Source: Nevskia sp. | GTDB lineage: Bacteria; Pseudomonadota; Gammaproteobacteria; Nevskiales; Nevskiaceae | Assembly: GCF_021732705.1 (NCBI RefSeq) | Contig: NZ_JAKFUM010000004.1 | Coordinates: forward strand, 1-64,000 | Reading direction: 5' to 3' | DNA length: 64,000 bases | Shown here: positions 35,295 through 51,531 of the stretch, in pieces | How the letters are laid out: every line of letters starts with the position of its first letter | Numbering within the stretch: position 1 is the first letter of the stretch | Program-made: the position numbers and the translations under genes | The notes under the pieces: generated by a model | Seen by the model: only the letters and a program-made list of their open reading frames with translations | What the model was told of the DNA's origin: nothing | Databases searched by the model: none

Positions 35295-38200
35295 TCAGCG
35301 CTGCAGCACCGGATAACGGTCGAGCAGGCCCGGGGCCAGCTCGATGTCCGCCTCGCCGCCCTGCCCGCCGAAGCCGGCGAACAGGCGACGGGTGGTCACG
35401 TTGAACGAGCCGCTGACGCCGCCGATGGTCAGGGTCGTCGTCGTCGTCGTGTTGAAGCGACGCGACGAGGTCTGGCGCACGACCACCGAAGCGCCGTTGC
35501 TGACGGTGCCCGGCGTGGTCACGAACGGACCGCCGTTGATGCTGTAGCTGCCGCCGGTGACGCTGATCGCGGCCGGCGAATTGATGCCGGCGACCGTGAT
35601 CGCATCCGACGTCTGCACCGTGTTCCGCAGCACGCCGGTCCGCGGCGCGAAGCTGAACGCGTTCGGCACGGTGTCCTCGGCTTCGGTGGCGACGCTGAAG
35701 TTGGCCGAGAAGGCGTCGATGGTCAGCACCGCGTTGACGGCCGACGTGAACTGCGCCGGCGACAGCACGCGCACGCGCACCGAGTCACCGTTGTTGACGA
35801 CACCGCCGACGAAGCTGGTGAAGGTGCCGCCGTTCACCGAGAACTCGCCGCCGGCAATGCTGATGCTGGCCGGCGCTTCGATGCCGGTCACCACGATGCT
35901 CTGCGACACGATCAGCGTGTTGCGCGGGGCATTCGTCACCGGCGGGAAGCTGAACGGCGTCGGGAACGTGTTGGCGTTGCGGGTGGTGACGTTGAACGCC
36001 GCCGAGACGCCGCCGATGCTCAGCGTCGCCGTCGTGGTGTTGGCGAAGTTGCTCGCCGACAGCACCTTCACCGCCACCGTGTCGCCGTTGCTGACCGTGC
36101 CGGCCGCACTGACGAACGCGCCGCCGTTGACGCTGTAGCTGCCGTTGGCGATCGAGATCGAGGTCGGTGCAGTGATGCCGCCCACGGTGATCGTGTTGCT
36201 GGTGGTCAGCGTGTTGCGCTCGGCATTGACGACGGCCGTGAACGCGAAGGCGTTCGGCACCGTGTCGTTCACCGTCACCGCGACCGACGCCGTGGCGCTG
36301 CCGCCGCGACCGTCGACGATCGAGTAGGTGAACGAATCGTTGCCGCTGAAGCCGGCATTCGGCGTGTAGCGAATCAGCGAGCCATCGATCACGGCCGTGC
36401 CGAAGCCCGGTGCGCCGACTTCGCTGATGGTCAGCGTGTCGCCATCGCCGTCGGTGTCGTTGGCCAGCACGTCGACGGTGGCCGCGGTGTCCTGATCCAG
36501 CGTCAGCACGTCATCGACCGCAACCGGCGGCCGGTTGGCCGGGTTGATCCGGACCGACACGGTGGCCACACCGGTGGCCTGCTCGTTGTCGGTGACGGTC
36601 AGCGTGAAGGTCACGGTGATCGTTTCGCGCACCGCCGGTGCCACGAAGCTGGCGGTGGCGGTGTCGGCGTTCAGCAGCGAAATGGTCGGACCGCCGCTCT
36701 GCACCCACGCATAGCTCGCGATCGTGCCGTCGCTGTCGGTGCTGCCGGTGCCGTCAAGCGTCACCGTCTGGCCACCGATGGCCACGGCCGGCACGGCCAC
36801 CGCAACCGCCGTTGGCGCGACATTGGCTGGCAGCAGGTACGACGACAGCAGAGGCTCGTGATCGCTGAGCTGCACCGCGTACTCGGCGTTCAGGCGAATG
36901 GCTTCGTACTGCGCATTGGCCGCCAGCAGCGACGGCGTCGCGAGGATGTGATCGAGTTCCTGCGCGTTGCCTTCGAAGGTGTAGCTGTAGCGTTCGGCCG
37001 GATCGGCGATCAGCTCGGTGCCGAGGTTGCGCAGCGTGTCCAGCGTGCCATTCACGCCGGTCCGCAGGATGCGCAGCGGCGGGCTGAAGTCGAAATCGTT
37101 CAGGTCGCCGAGAACGATGACGCGCGCCGCGGGATCGAGCGACTGAACGCTGCTGACGAAGTTGTTCACCAGCGTGGCCTGATTGATGCGCTGCGCCTCG
37201 CTGCTCAGGATCGGCGGCTGGTTGACGCCCAGCAGCGGCTCGTCGCCACCCTTCGAGTTGAAGTGGTTGTTGACGATGACCACGCGACGACCGTTGAAGT
37301 CGTAGGTCGCCGCGAGCGGCTTGCGGCTGGAGTTGAACGCGGTGTTGGTCGGCGAGATGCGGCCCGGCGACAGGGTCAGGGCCACGCGGCCGTTGACCAG
37401 CGTCGGCGCCGTGGCGTCCAGCGAACCACCGGCACCGGCGGTGCCCGGCACGAAGCTGACGCGCAACGGGTTGTAGAACTGCACGAGACGGATGTTGCCG
37501 CCAGGCTCGCCGCCGTCCTGGTTGTTGACCGGGTCGACCGTGACGAAGCTGTAGCGCGGGCCACCGGCCGCGACGATGGCGTCGATCAGCAGCTGGATCG
37601 TCTGGCTCGCCGAGACGATGCCGTTGTTGGTCGCACCGTTGTTGTCCTGGACTTCGCTCAGCGCGAGGATGTCCGGCGCGCCGAGCGCATTGGCGATCTG
37701 CTGGCCGAAGGCGGTGAACGTGGTGTCGCCCGGATCGAGGTTTTCGACGTTGTAGGCACCGACGCTCAGACGATCGCCGCCGAACGCGATGGTGCGCACG
37801 CCGGTCGGCAGCGGATTGGAGGTCAGCGTCGGTGTTGCCGTCAGCAGCACTTCGTAGTTGCCGAACGAATAGGTCGCAACGCCGGTGACATCACCGAGGA
37901 AGTCGCCGGTGTTGACGCCCTGCGGCATCACGACACCGTTCAGGCCGTCATCGAGCTGGATGCGCTCCGGGTTGTAGTCGACACCGGTCGAACGCTCGAC
38001 CAGCGTGATGCCGCCGCGGGCGTTGGCGCCCGTGGCGTTGGCACCGAGATCGCCGACGACCCAGACTTCGCCGAAATTGTTGCGCGGGCCGGTGGCGCGG
38101 GTGCCGTTGATGCGCACCAGCATGCCTTCGAGCGACTCGTGGAAATCCAGGCCGTCCTGCGCCGGATCGAACTGCGTGGTCAGGCTGGTCTCGACATTGC

Positions 38201-39602
38201 CGAGCGAGTCGTTGTCGATGATGTCGGCGGGCGGAATGCGGCCGCCGTTGCCGAGCACCGTCGGGGTGATGACGGTGTTCAGGAACAGCGCGTTGCCGAC
38301 ATACGGGGTGACCGTCGGAACGCCGATCTGGGTGACCGTCAGGTTGTCGGCGTCGTTGCCCGGACGATTTTCCTGCACGGTGCCGGAGACCAGCACCTGC
38401 GAGCCGACCGACGCTGCCGCCGGCGGCGCCGTCGAGGTGAACACGAAGATGCCGTCGGAGGTGGCGTCGATGCCGTCGCCATCACCGTCCTGCATGTAGA
38501 AACCGTTGCCGGCACGGGCGGTGACGATGCCCGGGACGTTGGTCACGGTCTGGCCGACCATCGGCGAGCGGTGCTGCGCGCCCTGGATCTGATAGATGCG
38601 CGTGCCGACCTGCGGTGGCGGCGACGGATCGTTGTCGAGAATCGTGGCGGTGACGGTGTTCGGCGTGCCGGCGGTGGCCCCGCTGAGCGTGCCGAGTGAT
38701 GCGATGACGGTTTCATCGCCCTCGAACACCGCATCTTCGATCGCGCTGACCGTCAGGCTGGCGCTGGTGGCGCCGGTCGGGATCGTCAGCGTCGTGGTCG
38801 ACGCGGTGTAGTCCGTGTTGATCGTCGCGGAGCCGCCGAACACGACATTCACCGTGACCGGCGAGGTGTACGCGGCCGACAGGGTCGCCGTGACCGAGGC
38901 ACTGCCGCCGCCTTCGCTGAACGAGGCCGGCGTGACGCTGAGGCTGACCGATGGCAAGCCGCCACCGCCGCCGCCATTGGCCGGGCTCAGGCTGTTGCGC
39001 GGCGCGCCGGGACCGGCGGCCGGGAAATCGGTGGCGTTGTTGTTGGCGTCCTGAACCACGCCGCCGACGGTGCTGCGCAGGAACGCGGTGTTGATGCCGT
39101 TGGCCGTCGGGGTGACGATGCCGGTGCCTTCACGGCAGGGGCTCGCGCCGCTGCCGACGCCATCGACGGCGACGCCGGTCAGCGCCGTGCTGTTGCTCGG
39201 CACGATGCGGATGCCGGAGAAGCCGGCCGTGCTGAAATCGGTGACGCCGACTGTATAGGTCGAATCCGGTGCGACGCCCAGCGAGTAGCTGGTGGTCGTC
39301 GGGGCGACGGTGTTCGCGAACAGGTAGTAGCGGCCGGGCAGCAGCGTGGTGCCGGCCGGCACCGTTGCGCGCACCGACGGCGTGCCCGGCGTGCCGTTCT
39401 GGCAGCCCTGCAGCGTCCAGCCGCCGATCGACACCGGGGCGGAACTGGCGTTGTAGATCTCGACGAACTCGTCGTTACCGCCAACGGGACCGCGGACCGC
39501 GAACTGCGAGATGACGACACCGCTTGCCTGCTGGGCAAACGCCGGTGCCGCGAGCATCGATAACGGCAACAACGCTGCCGCCACCTGCCTGATTAATTTC
39601 AT
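35295..39602 (-). CDS. ExeM/NucH-type extracellular endonuclease with lamin-tail, Calx-beta and C-terminal repeats
   Basis: 1435 aa from the ATG at 39602 (GGGAG upstream). A Sec signal peptide (MKLIRQ to AFAQQ) is followed in order by a lamin-tail domain (about 26-150, NDEFVEIYN and GGWTLQG), a Calx-beta domain (about 215-325) and an OB-fold region (about 330-560, GFYMQDGDGDG). The nuclease domain (about 620-940) has YNVENL, LSEVQDN, VNNHFNSKGGDE, GDLNDFD, ELDHIL and SDHEPL. A PKD/VCBS-like pair (about 945-1125) and three roughly 98-aa repeats follow. No membrane anchor is visible at the C-terminus. Likely roles are extracellular DNA degradation and phosphate scavenging. Confidence 0.88.
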   Translation of the reverse strand: MKLIRQVAAALLPLSMLAAPAFAQQASGVVISQFAVRGPVGGNDEFVEIYNASSAPVSIGGWTLQGCQNGTPGTPSVRATVPAGTTLLPGRYYLFANTVAPTTTSYSLGVAPDSTYTVGVTDFSTAGFSGIRIVPSNSTALTGVAVDGVGSGASPCREGTGIVTPTANGINTAFLRSTVGGVVQDANNNATDFPAAGPGAPRNSLSPANGGGGGGLPSVSLSVTPASFSEGGGSASVTATLSAAYTSPVTVNVVFGGSATINTDYTASTTTLTIPTGATSASLTVSAIEDAVFEGDETVIASLGTLSGATAGTPNTVTATILDNDPSPPPQVGTRIYQIQGAQHRSPMVGQTVTNVPGIVTARAGNGFYMQDGDGDGIDATSDGIFVFTSTAPPAAASVGSQVLVSGTVQENRPGNDADNLTVTQIGVPTVTPYVGNALFLNTVITPTVLGNGGRIPPADIIDNDSLGNVETSLTTQFDPAQDGLDFHESLEGMLVRINGTRATGPRNNFGEVWVVGDLGANATGANARGGITLVERSTGVDYNPERIQLDDGLNGVVMPQGVNTGDFLGDVTGVATYSFGNYEVLLTATPTLTSNPLPTGVRTIAFGGDRLSVGAYNVENLDPGDTTFTAFGQQIANALGAPDILALSEVQDNNGATNNGIVSASQTIQLLIDAIVAAGGPRYSFVTVDPVNNQDGGEPGGNIRLVQFYNPLRVSFVPGTAGAGGSLDATAPTLVNGRVALTLSPGRISPTNTAFNSSRKPLAATYDFNGRRVVIVNNHFNSKGGDEPLLGVNQPPILSSEAQRINQATLVNNFVSSVQSLDPAARVIVLGDLNDFDFSPPLRILRTGVNGTLDTLRNLGTELIADPAERYSYTFEGNAQELDHILATPSLLAANAQYEAIRLNAEYAVQLSDHEPLLSSYLLPANVAPTAVAVAVPAVAIGGQTVTLDGTGSTDSDGTIASYAWVQSGGPTISLLNADTATASFVAPAVRETITVTFTLTVTDNEQATGVATVSVRINPANRPPVAVDDVLTLDQDTAATVDVLANDTDGDGDTLTISEVGAPGFGTAVIDGSLIRYTPNAGFSGNDSFTYSIVDGRGGSATASVAVTVNDTVPNAFAFTAVVNAERNTLTTSNTITVGGITAPTSISIANGSYSVNGGAFVSAAGTVSNGDTVAVKVLSASNFANTTTATLSIGGVSAAFNVTTRNANTFPTPFSFPPVTNAPRNTLIVSQSIVVTGIEAPASISIAGGEFSVNGGTFTSFVGGVVNNGDSVRVRVLSPAQFTSAVNAVLTIDAFSANFSVATEAEDTVPNAFSFAPRTGVLRNTVQTSDAITVAGINSPAAISVTGGSYSINGGPFVTTPGTVSNGASVVVRQTSSRRFNTTTTTTLTIGGVSGSFNVTTRRLFAGFGGQGGEADIELAPGLLDRYPVLQR

Positions 39603-39879
39603 GCCGAGAATCTCCCGTTGACCACTCTGATTTTGTTGAACTGTGGGCATCGACCGAACGGCCGGACGCCAGACCCCGATGACACGTACCCCGATGCCAC
39701 GCGCACACGTTCCCCGATCATGCCAAGGACATGTGTCAAAGCTGCGATGCCGTATCAAGATCGGCATGGCAAAAACGAACTAGACCATCGAACAGAATTC
39801 CCCGTCGGCACGTTGGCCCCGATGGCGGCACAACTGCTGCGTCTGCCGGCCGAGAAATCCTGCCGCTACACTCGTCGGC

Positions 39880-41124
39880 ATGAGCCTTCCGACCGCTGCC
39901 GCCACCGACCGCGCCACCATCGCCGCACTGCTTGCCGGCATCGACCCTGACGCGCTGCCGCTGCGCGACACGCTGATTGAGCTGTCGAACCTGAACTCCG
40001 GAACCTTCAATGCCGCTGGCGTCGATGCCACCGGCAGCCGACTGATCGAGCTGTTCGCCGGTCTCGACGCGACGGTCGAGCACATTGCGGTCGCGCCGTA
40101 TCGCAGCACCGGTGACCGCGGCGAGCAGTTGCTGCGTCCCCTTGGTCAGGCGATACGGCTGCGCAAGCGTCCGGATGCAGCGCTGCGAATATTCCTGTGC
40201 GGCCACCTCGACACCGTATTCGCAAGCGGTCATCCGTTTCAAAAAGCGCGCCAGATTTCGGATGACGTGCTGAACGGCCCCGGCGTCGCCGATCTCAAGG
40301 GTGGCCTGCTGGTCATGCTGCTGGCGCTGACCGCGCTGGAGCGCAGCCCGTGGGCCGATCGCATCGGCTGGGAAGTGCTGTTCAATCCGGACGAGGAAAT
40401 CGGCAGTCAGGGCTCCGCTCCGCTGTTGCTGGAAGCCGCGTCGCGCAACGATTTCGGCCTGATCTTCGAACCCGCGTACAGCGATGGCGGTCTGGCGTCC
40501 GAGCGCAAGGGCAGCGGCAATTTCGATCTGGTGATCGAAGGCCGCGCCGCCCATGCCGGGCGCAACCCCGAAGACGGTCGCAACGCCATCGCACTGGCCG
40601 CCGAACTGGCGCTGTCGCTGCACCGCCTCAATGGCCAGCGCCCCGGTTTGACGCTGAACCTCGGCTACACGCACGGCGGTGGTGCACTGAACATCGTCCC
40701 GGATCGCGCCGTGCTCAAGTTCAATGTGCGTACCTCGCAGCCGTCGGACGAATGCTGGCTTGAGGAGCAGCTCGATCTGATGCTGACCCGCGCCAACGAC
40801 CGCGACGGCTTCAAGGTCGAACGCTTCGGCGGCTTCACCCGGCCCCCGAAGATCATCTCGGCCGGCACTGCCCGCCTGCAAAGCCTGCTCGGCGACTGCG
40901 GCCGCGACCTCGGCCTCGACCTGCAATTCCGCCCGACCGGTGGCTGCTGCGATGGCAACAACCTTGCCGCGGCAGGGCTGGCCAATGTCGACAACCTCGG
41001 CGTGGTCGGCGGCGACATCCATTCCGATCGCGAATGGATGCGCCTGTCCAGCCTCGCCGAACGCGCCAAACTCAACGCCGGGCTGATGCTGAAGCTGGCG
41101 AGTGGCGCGGTCAGCTGGGCCTGA
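39880..41124 (+). CDS. M20-family metallohydrolase
   Basis: A 414-aa di-zinc amidohydrolase of the acetylornithine deacetylase/carboxypeptidase G2 family. GHLDTVF, GPGVADLKGGL and FNPDEEIGSQGS supply the metal ligands and catalytic Glu, and RAAHAGRNPEDGRNAI is the dimerisation-domain signature. No signal peptide. The gene is just upstream of the ast genes. One speculation is that it removes an acyl group from a glutamate/arginine derivative, since astE is not seen in the window; nothing in the sequence proves this. A TACACT -10 ends 7 nt before the ATG and no ribosome binding site is visible. Confidence 0.85.
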   Translation: MSLPTAAATDRATIAALLAGIDPDALPLRDTLIELSNLNSGTFNAAGVDATGSRLIELFAGLDATVEHIAVAPYRSTGDRGEQLLRPLGQAIRLRKRPDAALRIFLCGHLDTVFASGHPFQKARQISDDVLNGPGVADLKGGLLVMLLALTALERSPWADRIGWEVLFNPDEEIGSQGSAPLLLEAASRNDFGLIFEPAYSDGGLASERKGSGNFDLVIEGRAAHAGRNPEDGRNAIALAAELALSLHRLNGQRPGLTLNLGYTHGGGALNIVPDRAVLKFNVRTSQPSDECWLEEQLDLMLTRANDRDGFKVERFGGFTRPPKIISAGTARLQSLLGDCGRDLGLDLQFRPTGGCCDGNNLAAAGLANVDNLGVVGGDIHSDREWMRLSSLAERAKLNAGLMLKLASGAVSWA

Positions 41125-41128
41125 CGGC

Positions 41129-41482
41129 GTGAACGACCACTCGAACGTCGCTGCAACCATCCCGCCGGAGACCTTCTTCGCCTGCGACCTGCGCGTGGCA
41201 ACGGTGATCGCTTGCGTACCGAACGCGAAGGCGCGCAAGCCGGCGTACAAGCTGACCCTGGATTTCGGCGCGCTCGGCATCAAGACCAGCAGCGCGCAGA
41301 TCACCGAGCGCTACGCGCCGGAAGACCTGATCGGCAAGCAGGTGATCGCGGTCGTGAACTTCGCGCCGCGGCAGGTGGCCAGCGTGCTCAGCGAGTGCCT
41401 GGTGCTAGCGGTCGACTCCCCGACCGGACTGGTGACCTTGAGCGTCGATCAGCCGGTTGAAAACGGGATGCGCGTGTACTGA
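41129..41482 (+). CDS. CsaA/YgjH-like tRNA-binding domain protein
   Basis: 117 aa from a GTG at 41129, which lies 4 bp after the M20 hydrolase stop; an in-frame ATG at 41102 would overlap that gene. FFACDLRVATVIACVPNAKARKPAYKLTLDFG, then ITERYAPEDLIGKQVIAVVNF, is the OB-fold of the tRNA-binding (EMAP/Trbp111) family, at normal CsaA length. CsaA has been linked to chaperone-like and export functions in Bacillus; the role in gammaproteobacteria is not settled. Confidence 0.88.
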   Translation: MNDHSNVAATIPPETFFACDLRVATVIACVPNAKARKPAYKLTLDFGALGIKTSSAQITERYAPEDLIGKQVIAVVNFAPRQVASVLSECLVLAVDSPTGLVTLSVDQPVENGMRVY

Positions 41483-41594
41483 CCGTCTCCGGCGGCATCC
41501 CGGGATCAGCCACGACGCCGATTGCCCAAGAAGCCATGCCGCCCTGCCGCGAGACGCCTGCGCTTTGAACCGACTGCGACGATGACGGCGACGG

Positions 41595-43061
41595 CTACGG
41601 GGCCCGATACTGGCGCAACCGCGCGGTCCGGGGCTCGGACGTGGTCCAGACCAGTGACAGCGCGCCGTCAGGCACCAGCGCCACGGCTGGCTCCAGCAGC
41701 CGCTGCCCGGGCACGGTTGCCACGTCGACCACAGGACCGAGGGGCTCGCCGTTGCCGGCATAGACCCGGCTGCGGACGGCGCCGGCATCCGGCTGCGGCG
41801 CATTGGCGATCGAATCGGTCCAGGCCAAGGCATAACGGCCATCGCCAAGGCCCGTGATCGCGACGCGCGGGGTCGAACAGTCGAACGCCACGGGGATGCT
41901 GGCGCGATCCACCGCCAGACCCGTCTGCGGCGGGACCTGCCGAACCCGAATCCGCGTTCCGAGCCCTTGCGATTCGCACCAGGACACCGTGGCCAAGCCA
42001 TCGTTGGCCAGCGCGACCACCGGCAACGACAACTGACCACCGGCGACACTGCCGCCCGGGGCGCGGATCAGGACCGGCGCGGAATCCAGCGGCTGGCCGG
42101 TACTCGTAAACCGGCGCAACTGAAGCGTCACCGCCTGCGGCGCGCTGAAAACCCGGGTGCCCGTCGACAGCGGCACCGGAACGCCCGCGTACAACTGAGG
42201 CGTCAGCGATTCGCGCCAGGTCATGACGAAGTCGCCGTCGTCATCCGTCGCGACATCGACGCCATCGATCTCCTGCGTCACCCGGACCACGGCGGTTGCG
42301 GCGATGGACGCCACGACGCCGGTGGCATCCCGCTCGGCGCGACGCGCCACGTCGACCCGCTCACCGATCGGCCGGCCGTTGCGGTCAAACCGCCGGGCGA
42401 CGATGCGCCGCTCGTCGAGGCTGCCGCGAACGGCCCCGCCAGCGAAGATGATGAAGGCGTAGCGATTTTCCCCGAAGCGCACCCGCGACGACGACCAGCC
42501 GACGATCGTGTCGCCATCGCGATCGATCGCCACCGATGGGATCGAGGCGATGCTGTCCGCGTCGTTCGCGACCTCGATCATCTCGCCGATCGGCACGCCG
42601 TCGGCGGCGTAGCGCCGCATCAGCACCGACGTCGCGATCGTGAATGGCTGCGGGAAGTCGACTCGCGACACCGACCAGACCACGGCGAACGAGCCATCGG
42701 CTGCTACTGCGAGGTCGCTGACGACGCGCAAATCCTGGAAAGGCGCGCCGACGACGGCGATGACGAAGCCATCGTCCAGCGGGCTGCCGTCAGCCGCAAA
42801 GCGTCGGCCGCGAATCGACTGCAGTCCCCGCCCTGCCGACTGTTCCCAGACGACGACGGTGGTGCCATCGGTGGCACGGCCCACGCGCGGGGACGTTTGT
42901 GCGACACCAGCGGTCGCGTCGATGTCGACCGCGGGCCCCGCCGGCGCACCCGGTGCCGCAGCGCTGCTGCCGGATGCGAACGCGAGCAAGGCAACGGTGA
43001 TGGCGGACGCAGGACGTCGTCGCGGGGGCGGAACCCGCGGGGGCGCGGCATGGTGATTCAT
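41595..43061 (-). CDS. Secreted seven-repeat protein, paralogue 1 (predicted beta-propeller)
   Basis: 488 aa. The N-terminus is Arg/Pro-rich, followed by a hydrophobic signal segment (ITVALLAFASGSSAAA). The mature part contains seven repeats of about 60 aa, each with a DGxxxVxW strand and ending in a motif like RRFAADGSPLD, MRRYAADGVPIG or ARRFDRNGRPIG. The last repeat stops at the C-terminus as LRQYRAP. Seven such units, closing at the end, suggest a seven-bladed propeller (inference). No enzyme motif is seen. Two paralogues lie at 43175-44593 and 45896-47269. Function unknown. Confidence 0.7.
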   Translation of the reverse strand: MNHHAAPPRVPPPRRRPASAITVALLAFASGSSAAAPGAPAGPAVDIDATAGVAQTSPRVGRATDGTTVVVWEQSAGRGLQSIRGRRFAADGSPLDDGFVIAVVGAPFQDLRVVSDLAVAADGSFAVVWSVSRVDFPQPFTIATSVLMRRYAADGVPIGEMIEVANDADSIASIPSVAIDRDGDTIVGWSSSRVRFGENRYAFIIFAGGAVRGSLDERRIVARRFDRNGRPIGERVDVARRAERDATGVVASIAATAVVRVTQEIDGVDVATDDDGDFVMTWRESLTPQLYAGVPVPLSTGTRVFSAPQAVTLQLRRFTSTGQPLDSAPVLIRAPGGSVAGGQLSLPVVALANDGLATVSWCESQGLGTRIRVRQVPPQTGLAVDRASIPVAFDCSTPRVAITGLGDGRYALAWTDSIANAPQPDAGAVRSRVYAGNGEPLGPVVDVATVPGQRLLEPAVALVPDGALSLVWTTSEPRTARLRQYRAP

Positions 43062-43174
43062 GAAGGAGCGGCCTATGGTGATGAGCGGAATGGTCGAAGT
43101 GGCAACAAGAATTCAGCGGCGTCCAGAACGGCCGGCCCGAGCGACGGCCGCGGCCGGGATTGACGGTCCTGCGC

Positions 43175-44593
43175 TCAAGGCCCGGCCAGCAGCCGGGCGC
43201 GAACGGTCTGGCCGGCGTTGGCGAAGCCGGTGCCACGGGTCCAGGTGACGGCGATCGTGCCGCTGCGGCCGATGGCCACGTCGGGGCTGGACAGCACGTC
43301 GGACGACGCCCGCGGCGACACCAGCACCCGGTCGGACAGCGGCTCGCCGCCGGCGGCGACTACCCGGGCGGCGATGCCGGCCCCTTCGTTCCAGGTCAGC
43401 ACGAACGTGCCATCGGCGGCCATCGCCACCGCCGCGCGATCCGCCAGCAGCGCATCGTCGAAGCTCGCATACGCGCGTTCCGCCGAGCGCGCGCTGCCAT
43501 CGGCCGCGTACAGCCGCGCGTTGATCGTCGTGGCGAACGAACTGCGGGACGACTCGCTCCAGGCCACGACATGGTCGCCGTTGGCGGCCATCGCGATGCT
43601 GGGTGCGCGGAAGATCGAACTGCCGGACGAGGGCCCGCTGGCCGGCCCGAAATAGCGCGCCGTGGTCACGCGCTGCACCGGCCCGCGCGCGGCACCGGCG
43701 GCCGTGTATCGGCGAACCTTGATGACATCGCTCGCCTGGGTCTGAACCCGCGTGAACAGCGGGTACTGGCGCAAGCTGCTCTCGCTCGCGGCCTGCTCGA
43801 CCCAGGCCAGCGCCAGATCGCCGTCATCATCCATCGCGACGTCGACTTCGGACCCGGTGAAGGTCTGCAGGTCGATGCCGCCATTGAAGAAGAAGCCGCC
43901 GACGGTGCCATCGAACGCCGTGGCCACGCGGCTGTCGGCCGTGATCAGCGCGCCCTGAGCCGTACCGTCGCGGCCGTAGCGCTGTGCGACGGAATCCTCC
44001 CGGGTCACGGTCAGACGATTCGACGCGATGCGCGCGAAACCGCGCTTGAACGACACCGCGAAGTCACCGTCGGCATCGATCGCCACCGCGGGCACCGAAT
44101 GGGTGGCGGTCGGATCGGCAGCATCGGGCGTCAGCAGCGCGCCAGCCGGCACGCCATCGGCGGTGTAGCGGCGCCCCTGCACACGGGACGGGCGGCGATT
44201 CGGCACGTCGGCGTCGCGGGCATCGCTCAGCAGCCAGAACACGACGACGTTGCCGGCAGCATCGATCGCGACATCCGGCGCGGCAACCACGGTGACCGTC
44301 GGCACGGCGCTGGCGATGACGAAACCGTTGTCGAGCGGTGCGCCGTTGACGGCCAAGCGTCGGCCGACGATCGCGTTGCTCGCGGCATCGCGCCAGACGA
44401 TCACCGTGCCGGCCACCGAACGCGCCACGGCCGGCCCGACCTGCGACGACGCCGACTCCGGCCGGACATCGAACGCCGGACCGACCGGTGTGCCCGGTGC
44501 CGATTGCGCGAGTGCTGCGAGCGGCAGACCCGCGAATGCCAAGGCAACGGCGACGGCAACGGTGATTCGCGAGCGATGCAAAGCAGTGACCAT
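43175..44593 (-). CDS. Secreted seven-repeat protein, paralogue 2 (predicted beta-propeller)
   Basis: 472 aa. The signal peptide (ITVAVAVALAFAGLPLAALA) is followed by GTPVGPAFDV, which parallels the mature start of paralogue 1. Seven repeats end in GRRLAVNGAPLD, GRRYTADGVPAG, AQRYGRDGTAQG, VRRYTAAGAARG, ARLYAADGSARS, ARVVAAGGEPLS and, at the C-terminus, ARLLAGP. Asp-rich DxDGDxA turns recur and could bind calcium. It lies 113 bp upstream of paralogue 1 in the same direction and is divergent from astA. Confidence 0.7.
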   Translation of the reverse strand: MVTALHRSRITVAVAVALAFAGLPLAALAQSAPGTPVGPAFDVRPESASSQVGPAVARSVAGTVIVWRDAASNAIVGRRLAVNGAPLDNGFVIASAVPTVTVVAAPDVAIDAAGNVVVFWLLSDARDADVPNRRPSRVQGRRYTADGVPAGALLTPDAADPTATHSVPAVAIDADGDFAVSFKRGFARIASNRLTVTREDSVAQRYGRDGTAQGALITADSRVATAFDGTVGGFFFNGGIDLQTFTGSEVDVAMDDDGDLALAWVEQAASESSLRQYPLFTRVQTQASDVIKVRRYTAAGAARGPVQRVTTARYFGPASGPSSGSSIFRAPSIAMAANGDHVVAWSESSRSSFATTINARLYAADGSARSAERAYASFDDALLADRAAVAMAADGTFVLTWNEGAGIAARVVAAGGEPLSDRVLVSPRASSDVLSSPDVAIGRSGTIAVTWTRGTGFANAGQTVRARLLAGP

Positions 44594-44839
44594 GGGATCT
44601 CACAGGTCGAACGGCGGCGCCGGCGTCGTACGCTGCCGAGATTGATGCAAGGCTAGCGCCCGTGGTGAACCGGTCGTCATTGATTTCGATCATTGATCAC
44701 GAAGACACGCGGGCGGCCGCCCCGCGTCGGGAAGTCTTAAGCTTGCGGCATTCATCGCTGGCGTCGTCCGGACCCGGCTCCAACCTCACGGATCGCGAGG
44801 CCGCCGGTTGCGCGCCCGATCCGCCTTGTCGACGTCATC

Positions 44840-45871
44840 ATGAAAATCATCCGACCGATCCGCGCCGATGACCTGCCGGCCCTCGTCCACATGGCCGAGA
44901 CCGCCGGCGCCGGCTTCACCTCGCTGCCGCCGGTGCCGGAATTCCTCGCGCAGAAGATCGCGTTGAGCGAAGCCTCGTTCGCCGCCGCCATCGCCACGCC
45001 GGGTCACGAGCGCTACCTGTTCGTGATGGAGGAATCCGACACCGGCGAGATTGGCGCCTGCTGCGCGATCGAGGCCGCCTGCGGGCTGGACGAGGCGTTC
45101 TACAACTACCGCGTGGGCCTTGCCGTGCATGCCTCGCGCGAGCTCGGCATCTACAACAGCGTGCCGACCCTGTATCTGTCGAACGATCTGACCGGCACCA
45201 GCGTGCTGTGCTCGCTGTACATGAAGCCGGGCTTTCGCGGTGCCGGGGCCGGCAAGCTGCTGTCGAAATGCCGCTTCCTGTTCATGGCCTGCCATCCGCA
45301 GCGCTTCGCGAAGAAGGTGATCGCGGAGATGCGCGGCGTGTCCGACGAGCACGGCCACTCGCCGTTCTGGGAAGGGCTGGGCCGGCATTTCTTCACGGTG
45401 GACTACGACCGCGCCGAGCACATCGTCGGCACCGGCAACAAGGCCTTCATCGCCGAGCTGATGCCGCCGCATCCGATCTACACCGTGCTGCTGCCGCAGT
45501 CGGCGCGCGAGGTGATGGGCCAGGTCCATCCGCAGACGGTGCCGGCGCTGCATCTGCTGGAGCAGGAAGGCTTCCGCTATCAGGGCTACATCGACATCTT
45601 CGACGGCGGGCCGAGCGTCGAGGCGCCGCTCGACGAAATCCGCAGCATCCGTCGCGCGCAGTCGCTGACGGCGGTGGTCGGCGCGGTCGCGGCAGGTGAT
45701 GACGACCCGCTGTGCCTGGTCTCGAACACCGGCATCGGCGGCTTCCGCTGCCTCGCCACGCGGCTCGATCCGGCAGCGTGGGCCGACGGCCGGGCGCCGC
45801 TGTCGCCGGCGGTTGCCGCCGCGCTGGGCGTCGCCGACGGCGAGCCGGTGAAGCTCAGCCCGCTCGACTGA
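44840..45871 (+). CDS. astA: Arginine N-succinyltransferase
   Basis: 343 aa. A GNAT-fold enzyme that transfers succinyl from succinyl-CoA to arginine, the first Ast pathway step. IIRPIRADDLPALVHMAETAG at the start, FYNYRVGLAVHASRELGIYN, LFMACHPQRFAKKVIAEMRG and SPFWEGLGRHFF are conserved AstA blocks. Only one astA copy is seen, so this is not the AruF/AruG pair of pseudomonads. It lies between two of the seven-repeat genes and is separated from astD by the third. No clear ribosome binding site precedes the ATG. Confidence 0.95.
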   Translation: MKIIRPIRADDLPALVHMAETAGAGFTSLPPVPEFLAQKIALSEASFAAAIATPGHERYLFVMEESDTGEIGACCAIEAACGLDEAFYNYRVGLAVHASRELGIYNSVPTLYLSNDLTGTSVLCSLYMKPGFRGAGAGKLLSKCRFLFMACHPQRFAKKVIAEMRGVSDEHGHSPFWEGLGRHFFTVDYDRAEHIVGTGNKAFIAELMPPHPIYTVLLPQSAREVMGQVHPQTVPALHLLEQEGFRYQGYIDIFDGGPSVEAPLDEIRSIRRAQSLTAVVGAVAAGDDDPLCLVSNTGIGGFRCLATRLDPAAWADGRAPLSPAVAAALGVADGEPVKLSPLD

Positions 45872-45895
45872 GGTCCCGCGACGCGCGGCGGGCGC

Positions 45896-47269
45896 TCACG
45901 GCCTTCCGAAGCGCCGCATCATCAGGCTGCCGCCCTCGGCGGTCCAGACGATCAGATGCGCGCCGTCGGGCTGCGCCGCGACCGCCGGCAGACCGCTGAT
46001 CCTCGGCAACGGCGAGACCTGCAGCGGCGCGCCGGCGCTGCGGCCGTTGGCGCCGATGGTCTGCGCCACCAGTTCCAGCGTGCCGCCCTGGGTCAGCACG
46101 GCGACACTGCGGCCGGCGTCGAGCGGTGCCAGCACCGGCGGCAGCGGAATGAAGCCCGGCGTCGAGCCAATCGCGCTGCGCAGCGACAGGCCGTTCGCGG
46201 CAATGCGCTTGACGTAGGCCGTGCCCTGCGGAAACGCGATCGTCCGGGCATCGGTCCAGCCGATCGTCATCGTGCCGGCATCGTCGAGCGCGATGCGCGG
46301 CGCGGTACGTTCGTCGGCGATGCGGCTGGCCGAGGCCAGCGTGGCCACGGTTTCAGCCTCGCCGGCCGCGCTGCCGTCGGCGCGATAGCGGCGCGCGTGG
46401 AAATCGACGACGCGCGCACCGAGGGGCGTCGGCACGGGCCTTACGTACAGGCCGACCGTGAAGTAGTCCTCGTCGGACCAGGTCACGGCGGCGTCGCCGG
46501 AGGCGTTCATCGCCACGTCATAGCCGCGGAAGCCGCGGGTGCTGTCGAAATCGGCCTGCACGCCGTCGACGGCGAATGCGGCATCGCGATCGACCGTGCC
46601 GCGCGTGCCCACGGTCTGGCGCTCGCCGCGGCGGCCGCCGTCGGCCGCGAACTGGTCGATGACGATTTCGCTGATGCCGCGAACGATGTCGTTGCGGTAG
46701 TAGCGCGGCAGGATCACCGCGCCGTTGCGCAGCGTGATCGTGAATCGCGACCAGACCACGGACTGCCGGCCCTGGCCGTCACCGGCGATGACGGGCGCGC
46801 CCAGCGCCTGGAAGCGCTGCGCCTCGACCAGCACGTCGGCCTCGCCGAGCGGCTCGCCATCGGCGCCGAAGCGGCGGATCACGTTCTGCGTGGCCGACGA
46901 CAGGCCCGGCACCGATACCGCGACTTCGCGCTGCCACGTGACGGTGAACGCGCCGCTGTCGCTGATCGCGACATTCGGTGCCGCATCGCTGCCGTTGCCC
47001 GGCCGCGCGCTGACCGCGATCACCGGGCCGAGCGCGTGGCCATCGGCGGCGAAGCGGCGCGCCTCGATGACGCCGGCCGCCTGATCGCGCCAGACGACGA
47101 CACTGACGCCGGCGGCATTGACCGCCACCGCGGGATCGACCCGCGTGGCCGCCACTTCCGGAACGACCGGCGTTTCCGGCCCGAGCGGCGCGGCATCGAT
47201 CGCCAGCGCGGTCATCGTCACCAGCAGGGCGGCCAGCAGGCGGGCCACGCGATGTGCCTCTCGAAACAT
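45896..47269 (-). CDS. Secreted seven-repeat protein, paralogue 3 (predicted beta-propeller)
   Basis: 457 aa from the ATG at 47269 (MFREAHRVARLLAALLV). A signal peptide is followed by AAPLGPETPVV and AVAVNAAGVSVVVWRDQAAG. Seven repeats end in ARRFAADGHALG, IRRFGADGEPLG, IDQFAADGGRRG, ARRYRADGSAAG, VKRIAANGLSLR, AQTIGANGRSAG and, at the C-terminus, MRRFGRP. The opening VVVWRDQAAGVIEARRFA closely parallels VIVWRDAASNAIVGRRLA of paralogue 2. It is convergent with astA and divergent from astD. In-frame sequence further upstream shows no coding character. Confidence 0.7.
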   Translation of the reverse strand: MFREAHRVARLLAALLVTMTALAIDAAPLGPETPVVPEVAATRVDPAVAVNAAGVSVVVWRDQAAGVIEARRFAADGHALGPVIAVSARPGNGSDAAPNVAISDSGAFTVTWQREVAVSVPGLSSATQNVIRRFGADGEPLGEADVLVEAQRFQALGAPVIAGDGQGRQSVVWSRFTITLRNGAVILPRYYRNDIVRGISEIVIDQFAADGGRRGERQTVGTRGTVDRDAAFAVDGVQADFDSTRGFRGYDVAMNASGDAAVTWSDEDYFTVGLYVRPVPTPLGARVVDFHARRYRADGSAAGEAETVATLASASRIADERTAPRIALDDAGTMTIGWTDARTIAFPQGTAYVKRIAANGLSLRSAIGSTPGFIPLPPVLAPLDAGRSVAVLTQGGTLELVAQTIGANGRSAGAPLQVSPLPRISGLPAVAAQPDGAHLIVWTAEGGSLMMRRFGRP

Positions 47270-47480
47270 TCCGATGGTTCCCGGATTCAGACGCCCGGAC
47301 GGCGCAACGAAACCCTGCCAGCATCGCCGGGCGCGGACAAGCCCGTGCAAACGCCCATGCGAAACGGCGCGACGCCCGGGCGGCAGCGGCGTGCGCGCCG
47401 CGTCCGCCACGTGCGTTCGATCAATGCCGGACGCGCCGGGCCCGGCGGCCGGCACCGGCCTGCGAGCCGCTCCGACATAA

Positions 47481-50154
<2,674 letters not shown>

Positions 50155-50158
<4 letters not shown>

Positions 50159-51531
50159 GCGCGATGACACCGCCGGAGTCGTCCGCGCCGGCCAAGCCGC
50201 GCGCGGTCGAAGCGAACTTCGATGGGCTGGTCGGCCCGACGCACAACTACGCCGGTCTTGCGCAAGGCAACGTCGCGTCGGCCAAGAACGCGGAGGCGCC
50301 ATCGAACCCGCGCGAAGCGGCGCTGCAAGGCCTGCGCAAGATGCGGGCGCTGGCCGCGATGGGCCTCGCGCAAGGGGTATTGCCGCCGCAGGAACGCCCG
50401 CACATCCCGACCTTGAAGCGACTCGGCTTCAGCGGCCGCGATGCCGACGTGCTGAAGCAGGTGCATCGCGATGCGCCGGGACTGCTGGCGGCGATGTCGT
50501 CGGCCTCGTCGATGTGGACGGCGAACGCCGCCACGGTGTCGCCGGGTGCCGATACCGCCGACGGCCGCGTGCACTTCACGCCGGCCAACCTCGCCACGCA
50601 CCTGCATCGCTCGATCGAGCCGGTGGTCACCGGCCGCGCGCTCGCCGCGATCTTCCGCGACGAGAAATGCTTCGCGCATCACGCCGCCCTGCCGGCGACG
50701 CCGCAGATGGGTGACGAGGGTGCCGCCAACCACACGCGCTTCTGCGCCGAGCACGGCGAACCGGGGCTGGAACTGTTCGTCTACGGCGCCGCGGGCGAGA
50801 AGGACCCGAAGCCGGCGCTGCATCCGGCGCGGCAGAACCGTGCGGCCGGCGAAGCCGTGGCGCGCCTGCATCGGCTCGATCCCGATTACGTCCACCACGC
50901 GCAGCAGAAGCCGGACGCGATCGACGCCGGCGTCTTCCACAACGATGTCATCGCCGTCGGCAACGGCCACGTGCTGCTGCACCACGCGCAGGCCTTCGTC
51001 GACACGAAGGCGGTGCGGGACTGGATCAAGCGCCGCCTGCGCGGCCGCGATCCGGTGTTCATCGAGATCGACGATCGCGAGCTGAGCGTCGCGGATGCCG
51101 TCGGCAGCTATCTGTTCAACAGCCAGCTGCTGACGATGCCGGACGGCACGATGACCTTGGTCTGCGCCCATGAATGCCAGGACAACGAGCGGGTCTGGAA
51201 CGCGATCCGGCGCATCGTCGACGACCGCGAGAACCCGATCGCCGAAGCCAGGGTGTTCGACCTGCGCCAGAGCATGCGCAACGGCGGCGGGCCGGCCTGC
51301 CTGCGGCTGCGCGTGGTGCTCGATCCGGCGCAGCGCGCGGCGGTCAACCCGAAGGTCTGGATCGATGACGCGCTGGCGTCACGGCTCGAAGCCTGGGTCA
51401 ACCAGCACTACCGGGATCGCCTGGTGCTGGCCGATCTGGCCGATCCGCAGTTGCTGGACGAATCGCGCAGCGCGCTCGACCAGCTGACCCAGATCCTCGG
51501 CCTCGGCAGCCTGTACGACTTCCAGCGCTGA
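50155..51531 (+). CDS. astB: N-succinylarginine dihydrolase
   Basis: 458 aa. Converts N-succinylarginine to N-succinylornithine, CO2 and ammonia. [50 protein letters not shown] (catalytic His) and [16 protein letters not shown] (catalytic Cys) are conserved AstB blocks of the guanidine-modifying superfamily. A short Ala/Pro extension precedes the usual start. It is the last gene of the coupled astD-ltaE-astB unit. AstC and AstE are not in the window. Confidence 0.96.

What the first reader, a model, noticed from the sequence alone, without database searches (positions are those of the whole stretch)
41595..47269. Three paralogous secreted seven-repeat proteins interleaved with the ast genes
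Three genes (41595-43061, 43175-44593, 45896-47269) encode signal-peptide proteins of 457-488 aa. Each has exactly seven repeats of about 60 aa ending in an RRFxADGxPLG-like motif, the last repeat closing at the C-terminus. Seven in all three is hard to explain except as a seven-bladed beta-propeller. They flank astA on the opposite strand. No function is known to me. A secreted binding or scaffold family that expanded locally is the simplest idea; a link with arginine or peptide use is speculation.
Basis: partly seen in the sequence, partly recalled or inferred. Interest (0 to 1): 0.72.

Follow-up and report, generated by a model that had tools for sequence, protein, structure and literature searches.

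The report
Three fast-evolving secreted propeller proteins
Three neighbouring bacterial genes encode exported proteins built of seven similar blades, very probably ring-shaped binding proteins of a large family without a name, and they sit among arginine-degradation genes apparently only in one small lineage, where they have changed much faster than their neighbours.

Summary
Three minus-strand genes (488, 472, 457 aa) each carry seven repeats. A repeat model trained on other genomes finds 7, 7 and 7; 1,500 shuffles give at most one, the reversed proteins none. Repeat order, an N-terminal strand that completes the truncated last repeat, and profile matches to solved NHL-repeat propellers (best E 7e-4; single blades weaker; none from the eight closest proteins alone) support a closed seven-bladed beta-propeller. 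The genome, a relative of Nevskia sp. D1_Bin_22, holds at least 11 such loci; 40 of 58 family genomes have matches. The ast link is not conserved: 16 of 18 same-genus genomes have M20 and astA genes without a propeller in the flanks held. Only one close relative has propellers in matching places; these counterparts are 27-38% identical, M20 and astA 76-81%. Loops of one face vary most in four of seven pairs. Best reading: secreted, non-enzymatic, fast-diverging binding propellers; a role in arginine use is not supported. New member of a known kind.

The parts
41595..43061 (-). Secreted seven-blade protein 1 (P0001, 488 aa; tandem with protein 2)
   Evidence: Open frame; seven blades at residues 55-101,116-165,175-239,268-326,345-375,396-448,457-487 with a model trained on other genomes
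43175..44593 (-). Secreted seven-blade protein 2 (P0002, 472 aa; first of the tandem pair)
   Evidence: Open frame; blades at residues 53-94,105-152,167-220,249-309,329-372,385-426,435-467
45896..47269 (-). Secreted seven-blade protein 3 (P0003, 457 aa)
   Evidence: Open frame; blades at residues 45-87,97-144,158-220,251-309,323-361,385-419,427-455
39880..41124 (+). Context: M20-family hydrolase, found in the held stretch around astA in all 17 relatives looked at
   Evidence: PF01546/PF07687; NF005602 500.7 bits over cut-off 357; matched in 17 of 17 relative loci
44840..45871 (+). Context: astA, arginine N-succinyltransferase
   Evidence: TIGR03244 420.5 bits over cut-off 391
47511..48998 (+). 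Context: astD, succinylglutamate-semialdehyde dehydrogenase
   Evidence: TIGR03240 760.6 bits over cut-off 579.3
48995..50158 (+). Context: threonine-aldolase-like PLP enzyme between astD and astB
   Evidence: NF041359 and NF007825 over cut-off
50155..51531 (+). Context: astB, succinylarginine dihydrolase
   Evidence: PF04996 674 bits, TIGR03241 over cut-off
44594..44839 (.). Spacer between the divergent genes protein 2 and astA (possible shared promoter region, not tested)
   Evidence: Coordinates
47270..47510 (.). Spacer between the divergent genes protein 3 and astD (possible shared promoter region, not tested)
   Evidence: Coordinates

Best explanation
The three genes encode exported, non-enzymatic binding proteins with a closed seven-bladed beta-propeller of an NHL-like blade layout (strand a PxVA, tight DG turn, strand b VVxW, variable loop, strand c IxARRF, tight ADGxPxG turn, strand d). 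After export by Sec the ring is closed because an N-terminal strand d completes the last blade, which has only strands a-c. The loops b-c and d-a, which by propeller convention lie on one face, carry most of the length variation and, in several pairs, most of the sequence change; that face is the likely ligand site (glycan or protein of the cell surface or surroundings). The proteins belong to a scattered, fast-diverging gene family of the Nevskia/Solimonas group. They were placed between M20 and astA and next to the other side of astA in the ancestor of this species and one close relative, with a later duplication giving proteins 1 and 2, and do not serve arginine catabolism. Shown: repeat count, clade of slot 1, absence of propellers by astA in 16 of 18 genomes, divergence against flanks. 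Inferred: fold, export route, gain rather than repeated loss, binding function.
For: Seven blades in each with an outside-trained model; shuffled maximum one, reversed none. Family profile against solved structures: 8 of 10 listed sequences are NHL-repeat propellers (TRIM2/3/71, Thin; E 7.4e-4 to 0.012); single-blade profile: TRIM71, TRIM2 and eIF3B, 9 of 12 listed (best E 0.026, weak, three non-propellers at E 0.051, 0.07 and 0.43 ranked among them), reversed control 6 listed, none that I recall as a propeller. Over 263 blades the a-b and c-d segments have near-constant length (medians 15 and 19, IQR 14.5-15 and 18-19), loops b-c and d-a do not (IQR 7-12 each, d-a up to 67). Loop face less identical than tight turns and strands in P1-A, P2-A, P1-P2 and the C4 pair. 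Three of ten relatives scanned carry extracellular-type domains over cut-off (DUF11 twice, SdrD_B once), a fourth has near misses of LapA, Calx-beta and DUF11. GspD over cut-off in the genome. Propellers by astA in 2 of 18 genus genomes; slot-1 clade 99/94; counterpart identities 37.9, 35.6, 27.3% by global alignment against 75.7-81.2% for M20 and 79-80% for astA.
Against: No structure model could be made. The profile of the closest eight proteins alone found no propeller (best hit a chitinase, E 0.039), and the Tako8 match of protein 1 is a sum of seven weak hits to identical blades (6.3-6.9 bits each). No Pfam propeller family matches the three proteins up to E 10. No ligand, expression or location data. 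The loop-face bias is slight or reversed in three of seven pairs (P3-B 21 v 27% turns; C15 pair 71 v 74%; Solimonas pair 79 v 67%), and unassigned residues were counted as loop, which inflates it. Of 41 distinct frames outside this genome only 19 show exactly seven stretches over 5 bits with the first blade model, 15 show six, 2 eight and 5 fewer, so seven is the commonest but not the only count seen at that threshold. The nuclease beside the M20 gene is 79.9% identical over 996 residues but 57.0% over another 200, so not all flanking sequence is slow.
Confidence: 0.68

Rival explanations
1. The proteins are secreted propeller enzymes (for example polysaccharide-cleaving or lactone-cleaving), with an active site on the loop face or in the central channel.
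For: Many exported bacterial propellers are enzymes (established knowledge); an endo-arabinase chain is among the weak profile hits (E 0.26); a relative in this genome lies beside an esterase-like gene (recognised by eye).
Against: No enzyme family of NCBIfam matches and the only Pfam listing is a chance-level acyl-CoA dehydrogenase hit for protein 1 (E 0.14, under cut-off); the invariant and nearly invariant columns over 27 family members are all G or W; the loop face, where an active site would be expected, is the least conserved part in P1-A, P2-A, P3-B and P1-P2.
Confidence: 0.13
2. The proteins take part in arginine or peptide use, for example as periplasmic capture proteins co-expressed with the divergent ast genes.
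For: Proteins 2 and 3 start 246 and 241 bases from astA and astD and are divergently transcribed; propellers on both sides of astA are shared with relative G016.
Against: 16 of 18 same-genus genomes have astA with no propeller in the flanks held (stretches of 7-19 kb); two Solimonas astA loci have none within 1.5 kb; at least eight other family loci of this genome lie on other contigs than the single astA.
Confidence: 0.06
3. Seven repeats form an open solenoid or a surface-layer-like array rather than a closed ring.
For: Repeats with variable insertions can also build solenoids (general knowledge); no model was obtained.
Against: Six to eight stretches in 36 of 41 distinct frames of other genomes, seven being the commonest (19); the last repeat lacks precisely the strand that the N-terminus supplies; the structural matches are to propellers.
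Confidence: 0.05
4. The proteins are periplasmic assembly or scaffold factors (working like BamB or YncE, recalled) rather than binders of outside ligands.
For: Sec-type start, no lipobox or anchor seen by eye; propellers serve such roles (established knowledge).
Against: Scaffold factors are usually conserved in copy number and sequence; here counterparts by astA are 27-38% identical while M20 and astA are 76-81%, and 18 of 58 family genomes have no match.
Confidence: 0.08

Closest known systems
NHL-repeat beta-propellers (TRIM2, TRIM3, TRIM71, Thin)
   Same: Blade layout VAvD-x-dG-x-vvV ... F-x-x-x-G aligns in register; best solved matches of the family profile
   Different: No NHL match in Pfam for the three proteins; seven blades (NHL rings are mostly six, recalled); conserved W and ARR; long b-c and d-a loops; exported
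NF053835 PDIAV motif-containing lipoprotein (NCBIfam)
   Same: Weak match of protein 2 (E 1.2e-4, 21.7 bits), protein 3 (E 0.33) and 5 of 10 relatives scanned
   Different: Far under the cut-off of 90 bits; no lipobox seen by eye in the three proteins
delta-60 repeat (TIGR02608; DUF5122 propeller, the latter name recalled)
   Same: Weak match of two relatives, L033 (E 6.4e-6) and L006 (0.0021)
   Different: Below cut-off 76.5 bits; in this genome only the C4 locus, not these three genes, is listed (E 0.94)
Recently amplified WD40/WRAP and RCC1/BLIP-II type bacterial propellers (PMC9218822, section 12 read)
   Same: Bacterial propellers used for macromolecular binding; BLIP-II is described there as a secreted binder
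   Different: Here blades are strongly diverged within each protein, so the amplification is old; the diversification is between paralogs and between species

Membership tests
Seven-bladed beta-propeller (fold) | Seven sequence repeats of blade length | tested here: met
   7, 7, 7 stretches over 5 bits; shuffles at most 1
Seven-bladed beta-propeller (fold) | Closure of the ring by a split blade | tested here: inconclusive
   Sequence agrees: last repeat ends at strand c, N-terminus holds a strand-d-like segment; not seen in three dimensions
Seven-bladed beta-propeller (fold) | Four-stranded blades in a closed ring in three dimensions | not testable with these tools
NHL repeat (Pfam PF01436, accession recalled) | Match to the Pfam family | tested here: not met
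   No NHL match up to E 10 for the three proteins
NHL repeat (Pfam PF01436, accession recalled) | Similarity of the wider family's profile to solved NHL propellers | tested here: met
   E 7.4e-4 to 0.012 for 8 sequences; not seen with the profile of the eight closest proteins
delta-60 repeat (TIGR02608) | Score over the curated cut-off | tested here: not met
   No match of the three proteins
PDIAV_lipo (NF053835) | Score over the curated cut-off of 90 bits | tested here: not met
   21.7 and 10.3 bits for proteins 2 and 3, none listed for protein 1
PDIAV_lipo (NF053835) | Lipoprotein signal | tested here: inconclusive
   No lipobox cysteine seen by eye at the N-termini; no prediction program used
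Parts of the AST arginine pathway | Conserved linkage with ast genes across relatives | tested here: not met
   Propellers beside astA in 2 of 18 genus genomes

The most novel reading that the evidence does not exclude
The family is a repertoire of secreted recognition proteins under diversifying selection: a constant seven-bladed frame with one hypervariable face, kept in gene slots that are refilled or rewritten between species, so that counterparts beside astA fall to 27-38% identity while M20 and astA stay near 80%. Such a repertoire would serve recognition of phage, predator, kin or host surfaces and could be a natural library of propeller binders.
Probability: 0.17. Interest if true: 0.68.

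Novelty: new member of a known kind. Interest (0 to 1): 0.36.

Why it matters
No Pfam or NCBIfam family reaches its cut-off on the three proteins, although 40 of 58 genomes of this bacterial family hold matches. If the fast divergence is adaptive, it gives a bacterial example of a binding scaffold with one variable face, testable with ordinary genetics and structures. It also shows that co-location with a metabolic cluster can be a lineage accident.

Tried and rejected
Single-protein search of solved structures gave Tako8 (an artificial eight-bladed propeller) at E 6.5e-11, but this is the sum of seven hits of 6.3-6.9 bits to identical blades; I give it little weight. The profile of the eight closest proteins found no propeller. 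A role in arginine use was tested through synteny and rejected as the main reading. Shared neighbours of the paralogs were sought: ten proteins were scanned in Pfam, six of them neighbours at four of the eight other loci, with unrelated functions. Repeats across 41000-47700 were looked for; 20 of 23 direct families were shown, and no duplicated spacer stood out among the blade-like and short GC-rich matches. One orthology claim is unsettled: protein 3 and G016-B join at 99/36 in one tree and are unresolved in another (AU p 0.514; one clade of all five ast-linked proteins not rejected, p 0.191). The tree had one row in a wrong frame and was rebuilt without that fault and with one Solimonas and one further row fewer. 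One alignment had a row in a wrong frame and another had rows shifted by one blade; both were replaced. Literature searches on Tako8, WRAP propellers, Nevskia genomes, delta-60, fast-evolving secreted propellers, bacterial NHL, PDIAV, and Nevskia plus propeller listed no paper whose title or abstract start describes this family; the lists were capped (for example 8 of 14,670). Passages of PMC6327176 and outline, abstract and section 12 of PMC9218822 were seen, all others only as listings.

Full report
Observation. The three genes exist at the stated coordinates on the minus strand. All three proteins start with a basic and hydrophobic stretch ending in an AxA-like site, which I read by eye as Sec signal peptides. 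A blade model was first built from repeats of these proteins and one paralog; to avoid circularity a second model was built from 106 blades of 32 loci that lie outside this genome and outside relative G016. It finds seven stretches over 5 bits in each of the three proteins, at most one in any of 1,500 shuffles, and none in the reversed proteins. The count of seven therefore holds. The repeat motif is more degenerate than described, and the last repeat lacks the ADGxPLG part.

Fold. The unit reads PxVAxxxDGxFVVxW - loop - IxARRFxADGxPxGxxFxV - loop. The last unit stops after the IxARRF-like strand and the chain ends there; the N-terminus of each mature protein begins with a segment like the missing part (GPAVDI and the like). 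This is what a propeller with a split closing blade would show. A profile of 27 family members matches NHL-repeat propellers of known structure: eight of the ten listed sequences are TRIM2, TRIM3, TRIM71 or Thin chains (E 7.4e-4 to 0.012); the other two are FAP90 (0.1) and an endo-arabinase (0.26), which I recall as a propeller. A single-blade profile lists 12 sequences, nine of them TRIM71, TRIM2 or eIF3B (best E only 0.026), with three non-propellers between them (E 0.051, 0.07, 0.43), while the reversed profile lists six, none a propeller as far as I recall. I put the closed seven-bladed ring at above 0.9.

Family. In the fetched loci of this genome 12 open frames at 11 loci match the outside-trained model: seven frames with seven stretches, two with six, one with four, and one locus split over two frames; 11 is a lower bound, since only loci brought in by earlier searches were scanned. 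With the first blade model, 41 distinct frames of other genomes show seven stretches in 19 cases, six in 15, eight in 2 and fewer in 5. In the bacterial family 40 of 58 genomes, this one included, have a match to the profile of the three proteins (E up to 0.001, 10 of 12 genera); 11 of 21 relatives match the wider profile at 1e-5; in the phylum 30 of 299 genomes including this one match it at 1e-10, often inside larger open frames. The one scan of the named collection gave seven loci: Nevskia, two Solimonas, Microvirga, a planctomycete, Tenacibaculum and a thermoanaerobaculian. Ten relatives were scanned in Pfam: DUF11 reached cut-off in two, SdrD_B in one, and LapA, Calx-beta and DUF11 were near misses in a fourth; the other six gave nothing of the kind. 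Such partners are typical of extracellular proteins.

The ast neighbourhood. All 18 genomes of the genus have astA. In all 17 relatives an M20 match lies on the same strand as astA in the stretch held, in five of them 32-116 bases away, at most about 4.4 kb. A blade search of those stretches (7-19 kb) finds propellers only in G016 (1.5 kb flanks of all 18 genomes gave the window and G016). Two Solimonas astA loci have none within 1.5 kb. In G016 one propeller lies between the M20 gene and astA and one on the other side of astA, followed there by genes other than astD. Six neighbours of four other family loci in this genome have unrelated functions. The linkage is thus a property of a small lineage; that it is a gain and not sixteen-fold loss is inferred by parsimony.

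Fast divergence. Proteins 1 and 2 form a clade with G016-A, the protein of the same slot (99/94). Protein 3 and G016-B lie on the other side of astA; they join in one tree (99/36) and are unresolved in the other, on long branches. Global identities are 37.9 (P1-A), 35.6 (P2-A) and 27.3% (P3-B); local matches give 30.2 and 30.0% for the first two. M20 is 75.7-81.2% and astA 79-80% identical; the nuclease beyond is 79.9% over 996 residues and 57.0% over a further 200. Two other family members have closer counterparts among the five G016 stretches compared (61.0 and 74.3%); for the remaining paralogs no close counterpart was seen there, and not all G016 members were fetched. One of the two shows movement: the G016 place that corresponds by its neighbours to locus C2 of this genome holds the counterpart of locus C15 (74.3% against 37.1%).

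Where the change lies. Over 263 blades of 53 frames the a-b and c-d segments keep their length and the b-c and d-a loops do not (local alignment produced some zero lengths). In seven pairs compared, loop identity against tight-turn identity was 26/46 (P1-A), 20/48 (P2-A), 20/50 (P1-P2), 54/73 (C4 pair), 21/27 (P3-B), 71/74 (C15 pair) and 79/67 (Solimonas pair). Four pairs show a clear bias, two a slight one, one the reverse; residues not assigned to a blade were counted as loop, which favours the bias. In propellers these loops lie on one face (established knowledge).

Function. No catalytic family reached cut-off, and the invariant columns are G and W. Export, a constant frame, one variable face, variable copy number and the company of extracellular domains in some relatives point to binding of outside or surface ligands. 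GspD is present over cut-off, so passage through the outer membrane by type II secretion is possible. This step is inference; I give the whole explanation 0.68.

Novelty. The fold is known and the use of secreted propellers as binders is known; the family has no name in the libraries used. I call it a new member of a known kind. The most novel reading, a diversifying recognition repertoire, is open to a direct test with strain sequences.

Noticed in passing
39880-41124: An M20 hydrolase (NF005602) lies near astA here and in 17 of 17 relatives of the genus, while none of the 18 genomes has AstE over cut-off (TIGR03242; one weak hit, E 9.8e-4, in G021; the control search rings in E. coli). It may replace the missing succinylglutamate desuccinylase.
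   Followed up: partly
L085 500-9265, L086 880-9355, L088 6848-15362, L090 660-9407; also after astA in L087: In near relatives an about 8 kb block lies between astA and astD (in L087 it follows astA and astD is not in the stretch), with genes read by eye as TonB-dependent receptor, hydroxylase, ExbB, ExbD and ApbE; the window has protein 3 in that place instead.
   Followed up: no
L061 and L057: The G016 place corresponding to locus C2 holds the counterpart of locus C15, a sign that propeller genes move between places or were lost reciprocally.
   Followed up: partly
L053:5991-7503: A further propeller of this genome is split over two overlapping frames, broken gene or sequence error.
   Followed up: no
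35295-39767: A 1490-aa protein related to ExeM/NucH extracellular nucleases (NF033681 139 bits, under cut-off 300) has a match beside the M20 gene in 8 of 17 relative stretches.
   Followed up: no
L010, L011 and L006: A canonical family member lies beside an esterase-like gene in this genome and, by a shifted-frame reading, in two Solimonas genomes; recognised by eye only.
   Followed up: no
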